In this document: piece after piece, positions 1-54,968 of the stretch
How positions within the stretch are numbered: the stretch's first letter is position 1
Layout: each line of letters opens with the position of its first letter
Notes under the pieces: model-generated
The model's database searches: none
Seen by the model: only the letters and a program-made list of their open reading frames with translations
What the model was told of the DNA's origin: nothing
Program-made: the position numbers and the translations under genes
Assembly: GCF_950295315.1 (NCBI RefSeq)
Contig: NC_080181.1
Location: 33,620,441-33,684,440 of the forward strand
Reading direction: 5' to 3'
Source: Erinaceus europaeus
Lineage: Eukaryota; Chordata; Mammalia; Eulipotyphla; Erinaceidae
DNA: 64,000 nt

Positions 1-2980
1 TATCTTTCTGACTTAGCTCAATTAACATAATTCCTTCTAGCTCTGTCCAAGATGGGTCAGAGAAGGTGGGTTCATTGTTCTTGATAGCTGCATAGTATTC
101 CATTGTGTCTATATACCACAGCTTTCTCAGCCACTCATCTGTTGTTGGGCACCTGGGCTGCTTCCAGGTTTTATCTATTATGAATTGTGCTGCTATGAAC
201 ATAGGAGTACACACCTCATTTTGGTTGGGTGTTATGGAGTCCTTGGGGTATAACCCCAGGAGAGGAATTATTGGATCATATGGAAGGTCCATGTCTAGCC
301 TTCTGAGAGTTTTCCAGACTGCTCTCCACAGAGGCTGGACCAATTTACATTCCCACCAGCAATGTAAAAGGGTTCCTCTGTCCCCACAGCCCCTCCAACA
401 TGTGTTGCTGCTGTCCTTTTTGATGTATGCCATTCTTACAGAAGTGAGGTGGTATCTTAGTGTAGTCTTAATTTGCACTTCTCTGACAATCAGTGACCTA
501 GAGCAGTTTTTCATATGTTTGTTAGCCTTTTGGATCTTGTCTGAGGTGAATGTTTTGTTGATATCCTCTGCCCATTTTTGGATGGGGTCATTTGTTTTTT
601 GGTGCTAAGTTTGCTGAGTTCTTTATATATTTTGGTGATTAGTTTCTTGTCTGATGTATGGCATGTGAAGATCTTCTCCCATTCTGTGAGGAGTCTCTTT
701 GTTTAATAGTTTCTTTGTATGTACAGAAGCTTTTCAATTTGATGTAGTCCCATTGGTTTGTTTCTGCTTTAGTCTTCCTTGCAATTGGGTTTGATTCATC
801 AAAGATGGCCTTGAGGTGTAGGTGGAAAACTGTTTTACCAATGTTTTCTTCTAAGTATTTGATTGTTTCTGGCCTGACATCCAGGTCTTTGATCAATTTG
901 GAGTTGATTTTTGTTTCTGGTGAGATAAAGTGGTTCAATTTCATTCTTCTGCATGTTACAACCCAGTTTTCCCAGCACCATTTATTGAAGAGAGCCTCCT
1001 TCTTCCATTTCATCCTTTGGGCCCCCTTATCAAAGATTAGATGTCCATAGGTGTGGGGCTTTATTTCTGGGCTTTCAATTCTGTTCCACTGGTCTGAACA
1101 GTACCATGCTGTTTTGATGATGATGGCTTTATAATATAATTTAAGGTCTGGGAGTGTGATGCCTCCATTTCTGTTTCTTTTCCTCAAGATGGTTTTGGCA
1201 ATTCTAGGTGTTTTCAGGTTCCAGATAAATGATTGTAGTGTTTGTTCTATTCTCTTAAAGAAGCTTGGTGGAACTTTGATGGGTATTGCATTAAATTTGT
1301 ATATGGCTCTGTGGAGAATATTCATTTTGATGTTATTTATTCTTCCAATCCATGAGCATGGGATATCTTTCCATTTCTTGGTATCAGTTTCTATTTCCTT
1401 GAGTAGCGACTCATAGTTTTCAGTATACAAGTCTTTCACTTCTTTGGTCAACTTTATTCCTAGGTATTTGATTGATTTTGCTGAAACAGTAAATGGGAGT
1501 GATTTATGGATGTCTTCTTCTTCTTCAGATTTAGTGTTTGCATAAAGAAATGCCACTGACTTTTGTACATTGATTTTGTAGCCTGATACCTTGCTATATT
1601 GCCTAATAACAACCAGTAGTTTTCTGCTGGATTCTTCAGGTTTTTCTATGTATACTATCATATCATTTGCAAATAGTGAGAGCTTGACTTCTTCCCTTCC
1701 AACTGTATTCCTTTGATTTCTTTCTCTTCCCTGATTGCTATGGCAAGAACTTCAGATACTATGTTGAAGAGTAACGGTGACAGTGGACAGCCCTGTCTAG
1801 TCCCTGATCTAAGGGGGAATGCTTTCAGCTTCTGTCCATTGAGTATGATGTTGGCTGTAGGTTTGCTATATATAGACTCCATGATCTTGAGGAATTTCCC
1901 ATCTATTCCCATTTTTTGTAGAGTTTTCAGCATGAGTGGGTGTTGTATTTTGTCAAAGGCTTTCTCTGCATCTATTTAGATAATCATGTGGTTTTTGGCT
2001 TTGATTTTATTGATGTGGTGAATAACATTGATTGACTTATGGATGTTGAACCAGCCTTGCATTCCTGGGATGAATCCCACTTAGTCATGATGAACAGTCT
2101 TTTTGATATGTTGCTGTATCCGGTTGGCCAAGATCTTGTTTAATATTTTGGCATCTATGTTCATCAGAGATATTGGTCTGTAGTTTTCCTTTTTTGTTAT
2201 GTCCCTATCAGCTTTTGGTATCAGGGTGATGTTGGCTTCATAGAATGTGGAAGGGAGTACTCCTGTTTCTTCAATCTTATGGAAAAGCTTAAGAAGTATG
2301 GGTGCTAACTGTTTCCTGAAAGTTTTGTAGAATTCATTTGTGAAGCCATCTGGTCCAGGACTTTTGTTGTTGGGGAGATTCTTAATAATGGTTTCAACTT
2401 CTTTGTCTGTGATTGGTGCATTTAGATTTTGTAGTTCTTCTTGGTTCAGTTTTGGAAGGGCATATGCTTCTAGGAATTGTTCCGTTTCTTCCAGATTCTC
2501 TAGCTTGGTGGCGTATAGTTCTTTATAGAAGTTTCGCAGGATTCTCTGGATTTCTGTGGTGTCAGTTGTGATATCTCCTCCATCGTTTACAATTCTATTA
2601 ATTTGAGTCTTCTCTCTTTTTTGTTTGGTGAGTCTGGCTAGGGGTTTGTCAATTTTGTTTAATCTTTCAAAGAACCAACATTTGGCTTCATTGATCTTTT
2701 GTATGGTTCTCTTATTTTCAATGTTGTTTACTTCTGCTCTAATTTTAGTGATTTCTGTCCTTCTGGTTGCCTTAGGGTTCCTTTGTTCCTCTTCCTCTAA
2801 GTCCTTGAGGTGTGCAGTAAGGTCGTTCATTTGAGCTTCTTCTTGGTGTTTAATATGTGATTGTATGGCTATAAGTTTCCCTCTCAGTACTGCTTTAGCT
2901 GTGTCCCAAATATTTTGATAGGTTGTGTCTTCATTTTCATTACTTTCCAGGAACATTTGAATTTCCTGCTTGAGTGAGTC
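1..2980 (-). pseudogene. L1 ORF2 pseudogene, minus-strand arm of the inverted L1 pair
   Basis: Read on the minus strand this is LINE-1 ORF2 from about residue 269 of the family protein to near its end; the 3' end runs off the window. Broken frames at 2956-2081, 1933-1658 and 1661-639 give RT-domain peptides ([47 protein letters not shown]) and the C-terminal region. The catalytic loop, FADD in the intact copy of this window, here reads FAND. Private damage includes stops where HHDQVG and IISIDAE would continue (near 2081 and 1972). A one-base loss near 1700 and another frame break near 700 are shared with the plus arm. Not functional; the endonuclease is absent. Confidence 0.95.
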
Positions 2981-5158
2981 AAAGGAAAACTACAGACCAA
3001 TATCTCTGATAAACATAGATGCCAAAATATTAAACAAGATCTTGGCCAACCGGATACAGCAGCATATCAAAAAGATTATTCATCACAACCAAGTGGGATT
3101 CATCCCAGGAATGCAAGGTTGGTTCAACATCCATAAGTCAATCAATAAAAGCAAAGCCAAAAACCACATCAATAAAAGCAAAGTCAAAAACCACATGATT
3201 ATCTCAATAGATGCAGAGAAAGCCTTTGACAAAATAAAACACCCACTCATGCTGAAAACTCTACAAAAAATGGGAATAGATGGGAAATTCCTCAAGATCA
3301 TGGAGTCTATATATAGCAAACCTACAGCCAACATCATACTCAATGGACAGAAGCTGAAAGCATTCCCCCTTAGATCAGGGACTAGACAGGGCTGTCCACT
3401 GTCACCGTTACTCTTCAACATAGTATCTGAAGTTCTTGCCATAGCAATCAGGGAAGAGAAAGAAATCAAAGGAATACAGTTGGAAGGGAAGAAGTCAAGC
3501 TCTCACTATTTGCAAATGATATGATAGTATACATAGAAAAACCTGAAGAATCCAGCAGAAAACTACTGGTTGTTATTAGGCAATATAGCAAGGTATCAGG
3601 CTACAAAATCAATGTACAAAAGTCAGTGGCATTTCTTTATGCAAACACTAAATCTGAAGAAGAAGAAGACATCCATAAATCACTCCCATTTACTGTTTCA
3701 GCAAAATCAATCAAATACCTAGGAATAAAGTTGACCAAAGAAGTGAAAGACTTGTATACTGAAAACTATGAGTCGCTACTCAAGGAAATAGAAACTGATA
3801 CCAAGAAATGGAAAGATATCCCATGCTCATGGATTGGAAGAATAAATAACATCAAAATGAATATTCTCCACAGAGCCATATACAAATTTAATGCAATACC
3901 CATCAAAGTTCCACCAAGCTTCTTTAAGAGAATAGAACAAACACTACAATCATTTATCTGGAACCTGAAAACACCTAGAATTGCCAAAACCATCTTGAGG
4001 AAAAGAAACAGAAATGGAGGCATCACACTCCCAGACCTTAAATCAAAACAGCATGGTACTGTTCAGACCAGTGGAACAGAATTGAAAGCCCAGAAATAAA
4101 GCCCCACACCTATGGACATCTAATCTTTGATAAGGGGGCCCAAAGGATGAAATGGAAGAAGGAGGCTCTCTTCAATAAATGGTGCTGGGAAAACTGGGTT
4201 GTAACATGCAGAAGAATGAAATTGAACCACTTTATCTCACCAGAAACAAAAATCAACTCCAAATTGATCAAAGACCTGGATGTCAGGCCAGAAACAATCA
4301 AATACTTAGAAGAAAACATTGGTAAAACAGTTTTCCACCTACACCTCAAGGCCATCTTTGATGAATCAAACCCAATTGCAAGGAAGACTAAAGCAGAAAC
4401 AAACCAATGGGACTACATCAAATTGAAAAGCTTCTGCACATACAAAGAAACTATTAAACAAAGAGACTCCTCACAGAATGGGAGAAGATCTTCACATGCC
4501 ATACATCAGACAAGAAACTAATCACCAAAATATATAAAGAACTCAGCAAACTTAGCACCAAAAAACAAATGACCCCATCCAAAAATGGGCAGAGGATATC
4601 AACAAAACATTCACCTCAGACGAGATCCAAAATGCTAACAAACATATGAAAAACTGCTCTAGGTCACTGATTGTCAGAGAAGTGCAAATTAAGACTACAC
4701 TAAGATACCACCTCACTCCTGTAAGAATGACATACATCAAAAAGGACAGCAGCAACAAATGCTGGATGGCTGTGGGGACAGAGGAACCCTTTTGCATTGC
4801 TGGTGGGAATGTAAATTGGTACAGCCTCTGTGGAGAGCAGTCTGGAAAACTCTCAGAAGGCTAGACATGGACCTTCCATATGATCCAATAATTCCTCTCC
4901 TGGGGTTATACCCCAAGGACTCCATAACACCCAACCAAAATGAGGTGTGTACTCCTATGTTCATAGCAGCACAATTCATAATAGATAAAACCTGGAAGCA
5001 GCCCAGGTGCCCAACAACAGATGAGTGGCTGAGAAAGCTGTGGTATATAGACACAATGGAATACTATGCAGCTATCAAGAACAATGAACCCACCTTCTCT
5101 GACCCATCTTGGACAGAGCTAGAAGGAATTATGTTAAGTGAGCTAAGTCAGAAAGATA
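1..5158. repeat. Large L1 inverted repeat (arms about 2.2 kb, spacer about 0.8 kb)
   Basis: Bases 1-2191 are the reverse complement of about 2985-5158 with only scattered substitutions and a few small indels; long stretches, such as the [12 protein letters not shown] to GITLPDL coding block, are identical at protein level. Bases 2192-2980 are extra ORF2 sequence present only on the minus arm and form the spacer. The outer end of the left arm is cut by the window edge. Confidence 0.92.
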
Positions 5159-5199
5159 AAGATGAGTATGGGGTGATCCCACTCATCAACAGAAGTTGA
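2981..5199 (+). pseudogene. L1 ORF2 pseudogene, plus-strand arm of the inverted L1 pair
   Basis: LINE-1 ORF2 from about residue 525 (KENYRPISL) to the C-terminal stop near 5199, in fragments 2970-3524, 3521-4099, 4147-4521 and 4759-5199. It keeps RT motifs [12 protein letters not shown] and a damaged FAND loop, then the C-terminal region with the LLHCWWECK cysteine/histidine cluster. It shares two frame breaks with the minus arm (one base missing near 3481; a break near 4460). Private changes are a deletion of about 20 bases near 4041 and a short internal duplication at about 3138-3190. Upstream ORF2 and ORF1 are missing because the sequence switches strand at 2980/2981. Confidence 0.95.
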
Positions 5200-6105
5200 A
5201 GAAGAAGATCTGAAAGGGAAACTAAAAGCAGGACCTGACCAAATTACAGCAGGAACCTCACATCTCCACTATAGAGCCTCTACTTCCCCCAGTCCTGGAA
5301 CCTTTGGATAGGGCCCACTTTCCCATATGCCTCTCCCAATCCATATCAAATAATATTGCATCTGCTGATCGCAACCTAATCAACACAACGATTGCCACCT
5401 CAACATGCTTCACCTCAGACTGTGTCCAGAGACTTCATGTTGGGAATGACTACCCTTCAGCTTCATTACTCGGGTGAGACCTTCCATACCAGGTGGTTCA
5501 CTTTCTAACAAAGCCCCAAAACCTAGATATACACTAGTTTCGGTGAGAGAGAGCATATGTTCACACGTATCCACAAACTACTGCAAAATACATACCTGAA
5601 AGCAGAAGTACACTAGAGTTTGCAGTGAGTACCCCCCTAACACTTCCTCTCCACTATTCCAAGCTTTGCGTCCATGATTGCTCAACAATTTGTTTGGCTT
5701 TGTATGTTAACTCTCTTTTCAGCCACCAGGTTCCAGATGCCATCAGGATGCCTGCCAGGCTTCCCTGAACTAAAGACCCCACCAATGTATCCTGGAGGTC
5801 CGCGTCCCCAGAGACCCACCCTAATAGGGAAAGAGAGAGGCAGACTGGGAGTATGGATCAACCAGTCAATGCCCATGTTCAGCAGGGAAGCAATTACAGA
5901 AACCAGACCTTCCACCTTCTGCAACCCACAGTGACCCTGGGTCCATGCTCCCAGAGGGATAGAGAATGGGAAAGCTATCAGGGGAGGGAGTGGGATATAT
6001 GGAGATTGGGTGGTGGGAATTGTGTGGAGTTGTACCCCTCCTACCCTATGGTTTTGTTAGTTTATCCTTTCTTAAATAAAAAATAAATAAATAAATAAAT
6101 AAATA
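5200..6105 (+). mobile_element. L1 3' UTR and (AAAT)n tail of the plus arm
   Basis: Continues from the ORF2 stop. From about 5580 it matches the 3' UTR of the intact L1 at 27.8-28.27 kb (phrases ACAATTTGTTTGGCTTTGTA, GAAGCAATTACAGAA, TGGTGGGAATTGTGTGGAG). It ends in AATAAA-like (AAAT)n at 6068-6105. The first 350 bases differ from the intact copy, so the subfamilies differ in their proximal 3' UTR. Confidence 0.9.
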
Positions 6106-22100: not shown

Positions 22101-22688
22101 GTGGATCAACTAGGAATACCAAAGGAGACCACCCAGACCGAAACAAGACAGGACTAGAATGACCACAGAAACCCAGTAAATCACCCGTGAGTACAAACAC
22201 GTGTGGCTGGTGACAGAGAGGAGAGAGGGGCCTAAGGAGAGATTAAGTGACTGCTAACAGTTCAACAGTTTGTCAGTGGAGACACCACCTCCAGTCTGCT
22301 CCACCAACAAGGGGACAGCTGAAGGGAGGAAAGGACTCCCCAGAGACTCACCAAGTACAACTCTGAGTCTCCATTGCTACTACCCTCAGAATCTGGAGCA
22401 GCAACAGGGAGGGACACCAGGGCACAGAGATCTAACCGGGAAACTCAGGAGAAGACCTATACCTCGGTGGCATAGCTGAAGGGCTGTGAAAGTCTCTTTG
22501 CATAACCACTGGATTATCTCTGCCACACCCTGCTTTATCTCTTGGTCAGGAGTCATTGATTAAGCCAAGAAGCCTATTGATAGTTTAAAAGCCCTCAGGC
22601 TACCATAGCCTACAGGGGAAAAAAAAAAAAGGCTTTTACACCACTGAACTCCAACTCAGGGATTGAAAAAACTGTTAACTTATATAAA
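22101..22688 (+). promoter_or_regulatory. L1 5' UTR (internal promoter region)
   Basis: 588 bases upstream of ORF1. L1 5' UTRs carry an internal pol II promoter; here that role is inferred from position. A CACGTG E-box lies at 22,198-22,203. Homologous, more diverged sequence stands alone at 61,495-62,125, where the E-box reads CATATG. A poly-A run precedes ORF1 at about 22,619-22,631. Confidence 0.8.
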
Positions 22689-23663
22689 ATGGTTAAAACA
22701 ACAAGAAAAAATAATGGAGACTCGAACCAGGACAAGAGTCCAGCTAAAAGTCCTCCAGAGGGCGAAGCACAAAACAACGAGTTCAACATCCAAACATTAG
22801 CTAAGGAAATAATAACAGGAGTGAGTAAAGAATTTGAAAAAATTGTAATCAGAACTGCAGGAACAACAAATGAGAATATGCAAGAAAATTCTAATAATCT
22901 CATGGTTATTAGAGAGCTGAAAGCTGAAATTGCTGAGCTAAGAAGGCAACTAGCTGAACAAGCTAAAACAGTATCAGAGCAGGGCAACAAAATAGATGAA
23001 CTCCAGAAAGCAGTAGAGGGCAGAGAGAATAGAATCAATGAGGCTGAAGACAGAATTAGCAAGATTGAGGATGAATTAGAGACAAATAAAAAAGAAGTAA
23101 GAGATCTCAAAAAGAGATTAAGAGATGCTGAAAACAATAACAGAGTCCTATGGGATGACTTCAAAAGAAACAATATACGCATTATTGGCTTACCAGAGGA
23201 AGACAGAGAAGGGGAGGAAGAAAGCGTTCTCCAGGCCATAATAGCTGAAAATTTCTCTAGTCTAGACAACACCAAAGACATAAAGATTCAAGAAGCCCAG
23301 AGGGTCCCAAACAGAATTAACACAGACCTAAAGACACCAAGACATGTCATACTTAGATTGGAAAGGAATAAGGATAAAGAAAGGATCCTGAAGGCTGCAA
23401 GAGAAAAACAAAGAGTCACCTACAAAGGAAAATCCATAAGATTAGCAGCAGACTTCTCCATACAAACACTACAGGCCAGAAGAGAATGGCAAGATAACTA
23501 TCGAGTGCTCAATGAGAAAGGCTTTCAGCCAAGAATACTATATCCTGCTAGATTGACATTCAGACTAGATGGAAGCATCAAAACCTTCTCAGACAAGCAA
23601 CAGTTGAAGGAAGCAACCATCACCAAGCCTGCCTTGAAAGAAGTTCTGAAAGGTTTCCTATAA
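22689..23663 (+). CDS. LINE-1 ORF1 protein, RNA-binding trimer subunit
   Basis: 324 residues, close to the usual 330-370. ORF1p coats L1 RNA in the cytoplasmic RNP and acts as a nucleic-acid chaperone in target-primed reverse transcription. A polar N-terminus (MVKTTRKNNGDSNQDKSP) is followed at about residues 70-155 by a long heptad coiled coil (ELKAEIAELRRQL, EDRISKIEDELE) that would trimerise it. An RRM-like domain starts near residue 160 (NIRIIGLPEE) and includes TPRHVILRLERNKDKERIL. The C-terminal domain holds YKGKSIRLAADFS and KGFQPRILYPARLTF. The start is the first ATG after the 5' UTR and the stop is TAA. No frame damage is visible. ORF2 begins 56 bases downstream on the same transcript. 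Confidence 0.96.
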   Translation: MVKTTRKNNGDSNQDKSPAKSPPEGEAQNNEFNIQTLAKEIITGVSKEFEKIVIRTAGTTNENMQENSNNLMVIRELKAEIAELRRQLAEQAKTVSEQGNKIDELQKAVEGRENRINEAEDRISKIEDELETNKKEVRDLKKRLRDAENNNRVLWDDFKRNNIRIIGLPEEDREGEEESVLQAIIAENFSSLDNTKDIKIQEAQRVPNRINTDLKTPRHVILRLERNKDKERILKAAREKQRVTYKGKSIRLAADFSIQTLQARREWQDNYRVLNEKGFQPRILYPARLTFRLDGSIKTFSDKQQLKEATITKPALKEVLKGFL

Positions 23664-23719
23664 ACAACCAGACCACCACAAATAGAACATATATCAAAAC
23701 ACTCTAAAACTCTACAAGA

Positions 23720-26700
23720 ATGGCGTTAAAATATCTTCAATCTTTGATATCAATAAATGTGAATGGCCTGAATTCACCTATTAAAAGACACAGAGTAGGA
23801 AGATGGATCAGAAAACACAACCCAACAATATGTTGTCTACAGGAAACTCACCTAACGCAACAAGACAAACACAGACTTAAAGTGAAAGGATGGAAAACTA
23901 TCATTCAAGCCAATGGCCCACAAAAAAGGGCAGGAACAGCTATTCTCATATCTGACATGATAGACTTTAAAATAGATAAGATTAAAAAAGATAGGAATGG
24001 ACACTACTTAATGCTCAGAGGATCAGTCAATCAAGAGGACTTAACAATTATTAATATCTATGCACCCAATGAGAAGCCATCTAAATACATCAAACTTCTA
24101 CTGAAAGAGCTACAGCAATACATTAACAGTAACACAATCATAGTAGGGGACTTCAACACCCCACTCTCTCAACTTGACAGATCATCCAGGAAGAAAATCA
24201 GTAAAGACATAAGGGAGCTAAATGAAGAGATAGATAAACTAGAACTATTGGACATTTTCAGAGTCATTCATCCCAAGAAACTGGAATACACATTTTACTC
24301 AAATCCACATGGATCATTCTCAAGGATAGACCATATGTTAGGCCACAAAGACAGCATCAGCCTATTCAAGAGCACTGAAATCATCCCAAGCATCTTCTCA
24401 GACCACAGTGGAATTAAACTAACACTTAACAATCAACAAAAGATTAGTAACAGTACCAAAATGTGGAAGCTCAACAGTACACTTCTTCACAACTTCTGGG
24501 TCAAAGAGGAAATCAAGGAAGAAATCAAAATGTTTCGAGAGTTCAATGAAAATGAAGACACAAGCTACCAAAATATTTGGGACACAGCTAAAGCAGTCCT
24601 AAGAGGGAAGTTCATAGCTATACAAGCACACATTAGGAAACAAGAAAAGGCACAAATAAACAGCCTGATTGCACATCTTAAAGACCTAGAAGAAGAACAA
24701 CAAAGGAACCCTAAAGCAACCAGAAGGACAGAAATTACTAAAGTTAGGGCAGAAATAAATAACATTGAGAATAGGAAAACCATACAAAAGATCAATGAAA
24801 GTAAATGTTGGTTCTTCGAAAGAGTAAACAAAATCGACAAACCTTTAGCCAGACTCACAAAACAAAAAAGGGAGAAGACCCAAATAAATCGGATAGTAAA
24901 TGAAAGAGGAGATATCACAACAGACACTGCAGAAATTCAACATATCATGCGAGGCTTCTATGAACAACTATATGCCACCAAGCTAGAGAACCTGGAAGAA
25001 ATGAATGATTTCCTAGATACCTACCAACTTCCAAAACTAAGTAAAGAGGAAGTGGATAACATGAACAGGCCCATCACAGCTAATGAAATTGAAACAGTTA
25101 TCAAAAATCTTCCCAAAAATAAAAGTCCTGGACCAGATGGTTTTACAAATGAATTCTACAAAACTTTCAAAGAAGAACTAATACCTCTACTTTTAAAAGT
25201 CTTCCAGAAGATTGAAGACACTGGAATACTCCCTGCCAGCTTCTATGAAGCCAACATCACCCTGATACCAAAAGCAGACAGGGACACAACCAAAAAAGAA
25301 AACTACAGACCAATATCTCTGATGAACATAGATGCGAAAATATTGAACAAAATTCTAGCCAACCGGATACAGCAGTATATCAAAAAAATTGTTCATCATG
25401 ACCAAGTGGGGTTTATCCCAGGCATGCAAGGTTGGTTTAATATACGTAAATCAATCAATGTGATCCACCACATCAACAAAAGCAAGACCAAAAACCACAT
25501 GGTCATATCAATAGATGCAGAGAAAGCCTTTGACAAAATACAACATCCCTTTATGATCAAAACACTACAAAAAATAGGAATAGATGGAAAATTCCTGAAG
25601 ATAGTGGAGTCTATATATAGCAAACCTACAGCCAACATTATACTCAATGGTGAAAAACTGGAAGCATTTCCCCTCAGATCAGGTACTAGACAGGGCTGCC
25701 CACTATCACCATTACTATTCAACATAGTGTTGGAAGTTCTTGCCATAGCAATCAGGCAGGAGCAAGGAATTAAAGGAATACAGATTGGAAGAGAAGAAGT
25801 CAAACTCTCCTTATTTGCAGATGACATGATAGTATACATGGAAAAACCTAAGGAATCTAGCAAGAAGCTTTTGGAAATCATCAGGCAATACAGTAATGTG
25901 TCAGGCTATAAAATTAACATTCAAAAGTCAGTGGCATTCCTCTATGCAAACACTAAGTTAGAAGAAATTGAAATCCAGAAATCAGTTCCTTTTTCTATAG
26001 CAACAAAAACAATAAAATATCTAGGAGTAAACCTAACCAAAGAAGTGAAAGACTTGTATACTGAAAATTATGAGTCACTACTCAAAGAAATTGAAAAAGA
26101 CACAAAGAAGTGGAAAGATATTCCATGCTCATGGGTTGGAAGAATTAACATCATCAAAATGAATATATTACCCAGAGCCATCTACAAATTTAATGCTATC
26201 CCCATCAAGATCCCAAGCACATTTTTTAGGAGAATAGAAAAAATGCTACAAATGTTTATCTGGAACCAGAAAAGACCTAGAATTGCCAAAACAATCTTGA
26301 GAAAAAAGAACAGAACCAGAGGCATCACACTGCCAGATCTCAAACTGTATTATAGGGCCATTGTCATCAAAACTGCTTGGTACTGGAACATGAACAGACA
26401 CACTGACCAGTGGAATAGAATTGAGAGCCCAGAAATGAGGCCCCACACCTATGGACATCTAATCTTTGACAAAGGGGCCCAAACTATTATATGGGGGAAG
26501 CAGAGTCTCTTCAACAAATGGTGTTGGAAACAATGGGTTGAAACATGCAGAAGAATGAAGCTGAATCACTGTATTTCACCAAATACAAAAGTAAATTCCA
26601 AGTGGATCAAGGACTTGGATGTTAGACCAGAAACTATCAGATACTTAGAGGAAAATATTGGAAGAACTTTTTTCCGCATAAATTTTAAAGACATTTTCAA

Positions 26701-27544
26701 TGAAACGAATCCAATTACAAGGAAGACTAAGGCAAGTATAAACCTATGGGACTACATCAAATTAAAAAGCTTCTTCACAGCAAAAGAAACCACTACCCAA
26801 ATCAAGAGACCCCTCACAGAATGGGAGAAGATCTTTACATGCCATACATCAGATAAGAGTTTAATAACCAACATATATAAAGAGCTTATCAGACTCAACA
26901 ACAAGACAACAAATAACCCCATCCAAAAATGGGGGGAGGAATTGGACAGAATATTCACCACAGAAGAGATCCAAAAGGCTGAGAAACACATGAAAAAATG
27001 CTCCAAGTCTCTGATTGTCAGAGAAATGCAAATCAAGACAACAGTGAGATATCACTTCACTCCTGTGAGAATGTCACACATCAGAAAAGGTAACAGCAGC
27101 AAATGCTGGAGAGGGTGTGGGGTCAAAGGAACCCTCCTGCACTGCTGGTGGGAATGTCAATTGGTCCAACCTCTGTGGAGAACAGTCTGGAGAACTCTCA
27201 GAAGGCTAGAAATGGACCTACCCTATGACCCTGCAATTCCCCTCCTGGGGATATATCCTAAGGAACCCAACACATCCATCCAAAAAGATCTGTGTACACA
27301 TATGTTCTTGGCAGCACAATTTGTAATAGCCAAAACCTGGAAACAACCCAGGTGTCCAACAACAGATGAGTTGCTGAGCAAGTTGTGGTATATATACACA
27401 ATGGAATACTACTCAGCTGTAAAAAATGGTGACTTCACCATTTTCAGCCAATCTTGGATGGACCTTGAAAAAATCATGTTGAGTGAAATAAGTCAGAAAC
27501 AGAAGGATGAATATGGGATGATCTCACTCTCAGGCCGAAGTTGA
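23720..27544 (+). CDS. LINE-1 ORF2 protein, endonuclease and reverse transcriptase
   Basis: 1,274 uninterrupted residues, the normal L1 length. The N-terminal APE-type endonuclease (about 1-240) shows [39 protein letters not shown] and SDHSGIKL, carrying the Asn, Glu, Asp and His active-site positions. The reverse transcriptase (about 450-850) shows [52 protein letters not shown] and the catalytic FADD with Asp701 and Asp702. The C-terminal region has the CX3CX7HX4C cluster ([18 protein letters not shown], near 1128). The protein nicks target DNA and copies L1 or SINE RNA there. L1 ORF2 is translated poorly after ORF1. No missing key residue was seen. Confidence 0.97.
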
Positions 27545-53974: not shown

Positions 53975-54968
53975 TTTTTGCCACCAGCTCTATGCCTGAA
54001 GCACTAATCCACTGCTCCTGATGGATTTTTTTTCTTTCTTTTACTTTACAACACAGAGAGCTGTCATAAAAACTGCAGTAAAGGTGGGCGCAAGGAATAA
54101 CATCATTGCAAGACTGGCCAGCTCCTCATGGGGCGCGAGCGCTTCCACACTGCGATCATCATCTCTGGCATTATGCTATTCCACTGCAGAATACTGTGCC
54201 CCAGTATGGTTCCGTAGCCCCCATGTCCACTTGGTCGATTCCAAATTATATTCCTCCATGAGGATAATTTCTGGAACCATCCGTTCCACCCCGGTTCCAT
54301 GGCTGCCAGTTCTTAGCAACATCGCCCCACCAGATATTCGTCGGGATGCGGCATCATCTAAGTTCATTTCCCATGTCTACGCTCGACCGGACCTGCCAAT
54401 ATACGTGGATATCTTCGCCCACCCTGTCCGACGCTTGACGTCTCGTCACCCAATCTGGTCCCCTATGCCTACACTGAACTTCTCTGTTCCAGTCTCTTGG
54501 AAACAGAGTTGGCAGTCAGCTGAGGTAAAGAACAAACACCTCATCACAGACCCCTGCAAGCGTCAACCCGACTTTGACCTAGCACGTTATGATTGGGCCC
54601 TCCTCAATCGCTATCGAACAGGCCATGGCCGGTGCGCCGCTATGTTCCATCGCTGGGGAGCCAGAGACGACCCGAACTGCCCCTGCGGCTAACAGACAGA
54701 CTATGACCCACATAGTCAACGACTGCCACCTCTCCAGATTCAAAGGAGGTCTCGAAACTTTACATCAGGCTCAACCTGACGTTGTTGACTGGCTACGGAA
54801 GAAGGGCAAACGCTAGAAGAAGAAGCACAGAGAGAAGAGTGAAGTTGAGAGACAGAGAAAGAGAGACACCTTGTGAAACTTCCCCCCTGCAAGTGGAGAC
54901 AGGGGGGTTGAACTTGGGTCCTTGCTCATAGTAACGTGTGTGCTCAACCGGATGTCCCACCACCCAGC
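53975..54968 (-). mobile_element. SINE-A, long form, split by a foreign-looking retroelement
   Basis: Reversed 3' module at 53,975-54,060 (CACTAATCCACTGCTCCTGA). It resumes at 54,826 with GTGAAGTTGAGAGACAGAGA, GTGAAACTTCCCCCCTGCAA and a head ending CCCACCACCCAGCCCC at 54,968. The gap falls in the ACAGAGAG motif common to these SINEs. Confidence 0.88.
54061..54825 (+). pseudogene. C-terminal fragment of a non-L1 retrotransposon reverse transcriptase
   Basis: One frame (about 54,060-54,692) encodes 210 residues without a stop: RNNIIARLASSSWGAS, ALCYSTAEYCAPVW, MRIISGTIRSTPVPWLPVL, DWALLNRYRTGHGRC and CPCG. A single frame slip near 54,690 leads to TMTHIVNDCHLSRFKGGL and a stop at 54,814-54,816. 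The AEYCAPVW block and the C-terminal CxCG...HIVxDC zinc-knuckle-like motif are known from jockey/RTE-like non-LTR element proteins of invertebrates, not from mammalian L1. The catalytic palm is missing, so it is 5' truncated. It is CpG-rich unlike its surroundings. After the stop comes only AAGAAGAAG. CACAGAGAG occurs at 54,052-54,060 and 54,826-54,834, a possible TSD. The clade is uncertain. Confidence 0.85.

What the first reader, a model, noticed from the sequence alone, without database searches (positions are those of the whole stretch)
54061..54825. CpG-rich reverse-transcriptase fragment of a non-mammalian-type retrotransposon inside a hedgehog SINE
Seen: 210 stop-free codons, one frame slip, then 40 more codons to a stop. 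The protein has AEYCAPVW, TPVPWLPVLSNIAPP and a CxCG...HIVNDC C-terminus. By eye about 20 CpGs fall within 54,116-54,447, whereas the flanks have almost none. It sits within a SINE-A at a CACAGAGAG repeated on both sides and ends AAGAAGAAG with no poly-A. Known: these C-terminal motifs occur in jockey/RTE-like elements of invertebrates; mammalian L1 and BovB C-termini look different. Inference: a recent, 5'-truncated insertion from an element newly arrived in this lineage, possibly by horizontal transfer. If many copies share the 3' end, this is an undescribed mobile family in a mammal.
Basis: partly seen in the sequence, partly recalled or inferred. Interest (0 to 1): 0.9.

Follow-up and report, generated by a model that had tools for sequence, protein, structure and literature searches.

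The report
Known hedgehog Vingi retrotransposon fragment
The segment is the broken tail end of one copy of a jumping gene whose exact 3' end occurs 17,749 times in this genome; it is very likely the Vingi retrotransposon described in hedgehogs in 2011, so the finding is real but probably not new.

Summary
The insert is 54,061-54,825, with a 9-bp target duplication (CACAGAGAG), 39 CpGs against 2 and 7 per kb in the flanks, a reverse-transcriptase C-terminus with one frame slip, and a 3' end of (AAG)3 without poly-A.

It belongs to a large young family. The exact 22-nt 3' end occurs 17,749 times in the window's own genome (letters reversed: 0). Copies share the 3' end, start at different points, and 36 of 63 carry 7-14 bp target duplications (swapped control 1.5%). 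The longest copies read about 995 codons: AP-type endonuclease plus reverse transcriptase, no RNase H match. Full length is about 3.1 kb. Five of 30 sampled copies are 0.2-kb internal-deletion derivatives.

This fits Vingi-1, reported from hedgehogs by Kojima, Kapitonov and Jurka (2011). I saw that paper only as a citation, and the Repbase sequence was not held, so the identity is inferred. 'Undescribed' is therefore very likely wrong.

Horizontal origin is plausible but unproven. One unnamed 96% contig is probably host DNA; other outside relatives in the listed hits reach at most 61%, most without a name. Verdict: already known.

The parts
54052..54060 (.). left copy of the 9-bp target-site duplication CACAGAGAG
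   Evidence: exact match to 54826-54834; found again by rule
54061..54825 (+). 5'-truncated insert of the LINE family (very likely Vingi-1), matching positions 2292-3052 of the 3,053-nt stretch shared by copies L031 and L035
   Evidence: 96.6-98.3% DNA identity to other genomic copies over about 760 bp; position
54063..54692 (+). open C-terminal part of the reverse-transcriptase frame, ending at TAA after a one-base slip near 54,691
54693..54816 (+). rest of the C-terminus in the next frame, HIVNDC to the TAG stop
54817..54825 (+). (AAG)3 3' terminus, no poly-A; the same type of end in 42 of 42 aligned loci (39 distinct places), some with small changes
54826..54834 (.). right copy of the 9-bp target-site duplication
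   Evidence: SINE family not tested

Best explanation
The segment is a 5'-truncated, frame-broken copy of a LINE family whose exact 3' end occurs 17,749 times in this genome, very likely the known hedgehog element Vingi-1, and it was likely inserted by target-primed reverse transcription. In that mechanism the element's endonuclease would nick the target and its reverse transcriptase would start copying at the (AAG)n 3' end, usually stopping early. Shown here: shared 3' ends, ragged 5' ends, short target duplications, an endonuclease-plus-reverse-transcriptase frame without an RNase H match, and short internal-deletion derivatives.
For: 17,749 exact 3' ends, reversed-letter control 0. 150 of 150 scored fragment matches at 95-100% aa identity (capped list). 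42 of 42 aligned loci share the 3' end; 12 longer loci start at different points. Target duplications of at least 7 nt in 36 of 63 copies against 1.5% when left ends are swapped. One ~995-codon frame with PF03372/PF14529 and PF00078, no RNase H family at E 0.01 in the 4 long copies scanned. Internal-deletion derivatives in 5 of 30 sampled copies and one in L028. Literature: Vingi recently expanded in hedgehogs, with a derivative family Vingi-1N3_EE of 311 copies under 1% diverged (PMC3183009, passages; PMC5753468, passages).
Against: Identity with Vingi-1 was not tested by sequence: the 2011 paper is not held and Repbase is not available. No labelled clade references were held, so the tree does not place it next to Ingi. 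27 of 63 copies showed no duplication of at least 7 nt by my rule.
Confidence: 0.92

Rival explanations
1. It is a second, undescribed LINE family of this genome, distinct from Vingi-1 and separately acquired from an invertebrate.
For: No direct sequence comparison with Vingi-1 was possible. Apart from one unnamed 96% contig, listed outside protein relatives reach at most 61% identity.
Against: Endonuclease-plus-RT frame without RNase H match, young burst and internal-deletion derivatives agree with what is printed or recalled of hedgehog Vingi. Such an abundant family would hardly have been missed in a published repeat survey of the same host (inference).
Confidence: 0.06
2. About origin rather than identity: the Vingi lineage came down vertically in mammals, was lost in most, and burst late in hedgehogs, without horizontal transfer.
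For: Vingi remnants are reported in the human genome: X12_LINE (PMC5753468, passages) and one pre-amniote Vingi fossil (PMC9004415, passage). Vingi is also reported in reptiles.
Against: Copies are young (median 1.7% from the majority outside CpG columns) and no mammal is named among the listed hits (120 of 426, 120 of 655 and 79 of 79). This is weak, because most hits are unnamed and repeats are usually masked in gene sets.
Confidence: 0.3
3. It is an assembly join or contaminant from another organism.
For: Its base composition and protein relatives look foreign.
Against: 17,749 exact 3' ends on many contigs, with separate truncation points and separate target duplications.
Confidence: 0.01

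Closest known systems
Vingi-1_EE / Vingi-1_AAl, hedgehog LINEs (Kojima, Kapitonov and Jurka 2011, Mol Biol Evol 28:17-20; seen only as a citation, content recalled)
   Same: Endonuclease plus RT, no RNase H match, recent burst, short internal-deletion derivatives, hedgehog host (inferred)
   Different: Nothing known; sequence identity could not be tested
RTE1_Sar of the common shrew (PMC6542046, passages)
   Same: Non-L1 LINE in a eulipotyphlan mammal with proposed horizontal origin (there, nematodes)
   Different: RTE family; that study found no RTE1_Sar in hedgehog reads
L1 (hedgehog L1 frames in the same window)
   Same: LINE with endonuclease and RT (recalled); distant RT similarity to solved L1 ORF2p
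   Different: The window's L1 row sits on a very long separate branch of the tree, its place unsure; this family ends in (AAG)n, not poly-A

Membership tests
Vingi clade / Vingi-1 | AP-type endonuclease plus reverse transcriptase | tested here: met
   PF03372, PF14529 and PF00078 in L031
Vingi clade / Vingi-1 | no RNase H domain (recalled as the difference from Ingi) | tested here: met
   no RNase H family at E 0.01 in the 4 long copies scanned
Vingi clade / Vingi-1 | non-autonomous derivatives made by internal deletion (recalled; the name Vingi-1N3_EE seen) | tested here: met
   5 of 30 sampled copies and one in L028
Vingi clade / Vingi-1 | recent expansion | tested here: met
   median 1.7% from the majority outside CpG columns in 19 copies of at least 400 bp
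Vingi clade / Vingi-1 | sequence identity to Repbase Vingi-1 | not testable with these tools
   Repbase and the 2011 paper not held
Vingi clade / Vingi-1 | RT tree position beside Ingi | not testable with these tools
   no labelled Ingi or Vingi rows among the hits; the tree has none
Vingi clade / Vingi-1 | hedgehog host | tested here: inconclusive
RTE / BovB | RTE-clade reverse transcriptase | not tested
   no labelled RTE reference held; motifs judged unlike RTE from recall only
L1 | RT groups with L1 | tested here: inconclusive
   the window's L1 row falls outside all 34 other rows but on an overlong branch
L1 | poly-A tail | tested here: not met
   (AAG)n 3' ends in 42 of 42 aligned loci

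The most novel reading that the evidence does not exclude
A foreign LINE that entered the hedgehog lineage by horizontal transfer is still jumping today: a second autonomous retrotransposon beside L1 in a living mammal, with its own 0.2-kb SINE-like hitchhikers, and a source among animals whose elements are so far seen mainly in unnamed metagenome contigs.
Probability: 0.3. Interest if true: 0.5.

Novelty: already known. Interest (0 to 1): 0.2.

Why it matters
If horizontal origin and present activity were shown, hedgehogs would be living mammals in which an invertebrate-type LINE runs beside L1, a natural test of how a mammal tolerates a new retrotransposon. As it stands, the window adds a well-preserved example, and a genome-wide count of 3' ends, to a family that is very likely the described one.

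Tried and rejected
Rejected readings: undescribed family (Vingi is in print for hedgehogs); contaminant or assembly join; a single stray copy.

Led nowhere: Pfam on the 210-aa fragment found no family, and the 51-aa piece only a sub-threshold chance match; PDB with the fragment gave nothing; tRNA and Rfam scans of the window gave nothing; IMG/VR held no relative. Literature searches for Vingi with horizontal transfer, Vingi with mammal and recent Erinaceus assemblies with transposable elements added only the human fossil count. Horizontal transfer could not be decided: no donor, and no related mammals are held. P0123 (96%, one 2,072-bp ENA contig) groups with the genome's own copies and is most simply host DNA; not proven.

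Full report
1. What is in the window. The insert runs from 54,061 to 54,825 between two copies of CACAGAGAG. Its frame is open to TAA at 54,690-54,692; the C-terminus continues one frame over to TAG at 54,814-54,816, followed directly by AAGAAGAAG. The slip is one extra base near 54,691 against the column majority of 39 distinct copies (42 loci, 3 dropped as the same places fetched twice). CpGs: 39 in 54,062-54,825 (observed/expected 0.76), 21 in 54,116-54,447, 2 and 7 in the 1-kb flanks, 316 in the window (0.11); in 50-bp steps the insert is the most CpG-rich 764-bp stretch of the window. The right flank has 17 repeat-like relatives in the window, most at 70-78%. No other match to the element lies in the window at E 1e-3.

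2. The family. The window's own genome (2.72 Gb, 1,172 contigs, unnamed) gave 150 scored matches to the 210-aa fragment, the number scored out of 30,525 loose first-look candidates, 150 of 150 at 95-100% identity. The exact 22-nt 3' end occurs 8,856 + 8,893 = 17,749 times; the letters read backwards occur 0 times. Copies with any change in those 22 bases are not counted. The 42 aligned loci (39 distinct places) end in TAG(AAG)n, some with a changed base. Twelve longer loci share this end and start at different points, 95.6-97.4% identical in pairs over at least 900 bp. I looked at the first 30 places on contig C1. Five are short derivatives (L043, L058, L063, L064, L069) that join about 115-150 nt of the 5' end to 42-68 nt of the 3' end. 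Five run off the stretch held, and the other 20 start within the element or are short 3' pieces. A sixth derivative lies in L028. The derivatives show that the 5' end lies about 30 nt upstream of the 3,053-nt stretch shared by L031 and L035, so full length is about 3.1 kb. The window copy covers 2292-3052 of that stretch.

3. Target duplications. Of 69 distinct loci, 63 had both ends inside the stretch held. Of these, 36 had an exact duplication of at least 7 nt (lengths 7-14) and 26 of at least 9 nt. With left ends swapped between copies the mean fractions were 1.5% and 0.4%. Twenty-seven of 63 had none by this rule, L031 among them.

4. The protein. L031 carries one 995-codon stop-free frame with endonuclease (PF03372, PF14529) and reverse transcriptase (PF00078); no RNase H family matched at E 0.01 in the four long copies scanned. 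Its RT is distantly similar to solved R2 and L1 ORF2 proteins. With the first 300 residues of that frame as query, 131 genome matches were scored out of 16,106 loose candidates, at 92-100% identity; 3 of 131 lie in a stop-free 995-codon frame. Whether any copy is active is unknown.

5. Age. Of the 30 sampled loci, 24 were aligned with the window copy (left out: the five derivatives and L061, which has 68 bp only). For the 19 of at least 400 bp the median distance from the majority is 2.2% overall and 1.7% outside CpG columns (range 0.74-2.57%); the window copy is at 1.2% (8 of 673 sites). Against the 39 copies nearest to the window fragment, a biased set, the window copy is at 0.89%. The sample itself is conditioned on an unchanged 22-nt end, which leans it young. 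At a recalled mammalian rate near 2.2e-9 per site per year this would be several million years; the rate in this animal was not measured.

6. Relatives elsewhere. C-terminus: 426 proteins, 120 listed, 41-60% identity; named ones include the eel Synaphobranchus kaupii (55%), Latimeria (53%), a pseudoscorpion, a sand fly, aphids, beetles and a moth. RT plus C-terminus: 655 found among the 7,992 candidates scored, 120 listed; one ENA contig at 96%, the others 43-61%. Endonuclease part: 79 found, all listed, at most 59%; named ones are fishes, a sand fly and an aphid; two distant ones carry an RNase H domain. No mammal is named in these lists. That is weak evidence, because most hits are unnamed and repeats are usually masked in mammalian gene sets. 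In a tree of 35 rows (4 copies of this genome, 30 chosen from the listed hits, and the window's L1), the genome's copies and the 96% contig form one clade (100/100), beside P0124 and P0125, two unnamed JGI proteins (96/91); the named arthropod rows lie outside the 20-row part that holds them (87/100). The L1 row has an overlong branch and its place is unsure.

7. Comparison with what is known. Hedgehog Vingi elements were reported by Kojima, Kapitonov and Jurka in 2011. I could not read that paper; its content is recalled, and I saw it cited in PMC5753468, PMC3183009, PMC3391268, PMC3747384 and PMC3500645 (passages). PMC3183009 lists Vingi-1N3_EE with 311 copies under 1% diverged in Erinaceus europaeus and calls hedgehog Vingi a likely horizontal transfer (passages). 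[quoted passage not shown] Features tested here agree. The two strongest tests, alignment with the Repbase sequence and a labelled tree, could not be run. The shrew element RTE1_Sar (PMC6542046, passages) is a parallel case from another family; that study found none in hedgehog reads.

8. Verdict. The claim of an undescribed family is very likely not. Horizontal transfer remains an open suggestion already in print.

Noticed in passing
window 1-2192 and 2981-5158: A large inverted repeat of L1-like sequence: arms align over 2,201 columns at 97.3%, with ungapped pieces of 881 nt at 100% and 728 and 391 nt at 99%; it starts at the window edge, so it may be longer. A recent inverted duplication or arm-to-arm conversion is possible.
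   Followed up: partly
window 22584-27544: Two long stop-free frames of 359 and 1,278 aa that look like L1 ORF1 and ORF2 (by eye); the stretch aligns at about 81% with the L1-like arms at 5-5222. Possibly an intact L1; no domain scan was run.
   Followed up: no
L028 545-740; L043, L058, L063, L064, L069 around 1322-1523: 0.2-kb derivatives joining the family's 5' end to its 3' end, with at least three different junctions (87/3012, about 100/2985 and 119/2998 in L031 coordinates).
   Followed up: partly
L039 4357-6571: A copy whose part 836-1463 is inverted against part 1464-3053, meeting at that point: a 5' inversion of the kind recalled from L1.
   Followed up: no
P0123: A 2,072-bp ENA contig encodes a 582-aa piece of the same family at 96% identity; it groups with the genome's own copies, so it is probably host DNA in a metagenome.
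   Followed up: partly
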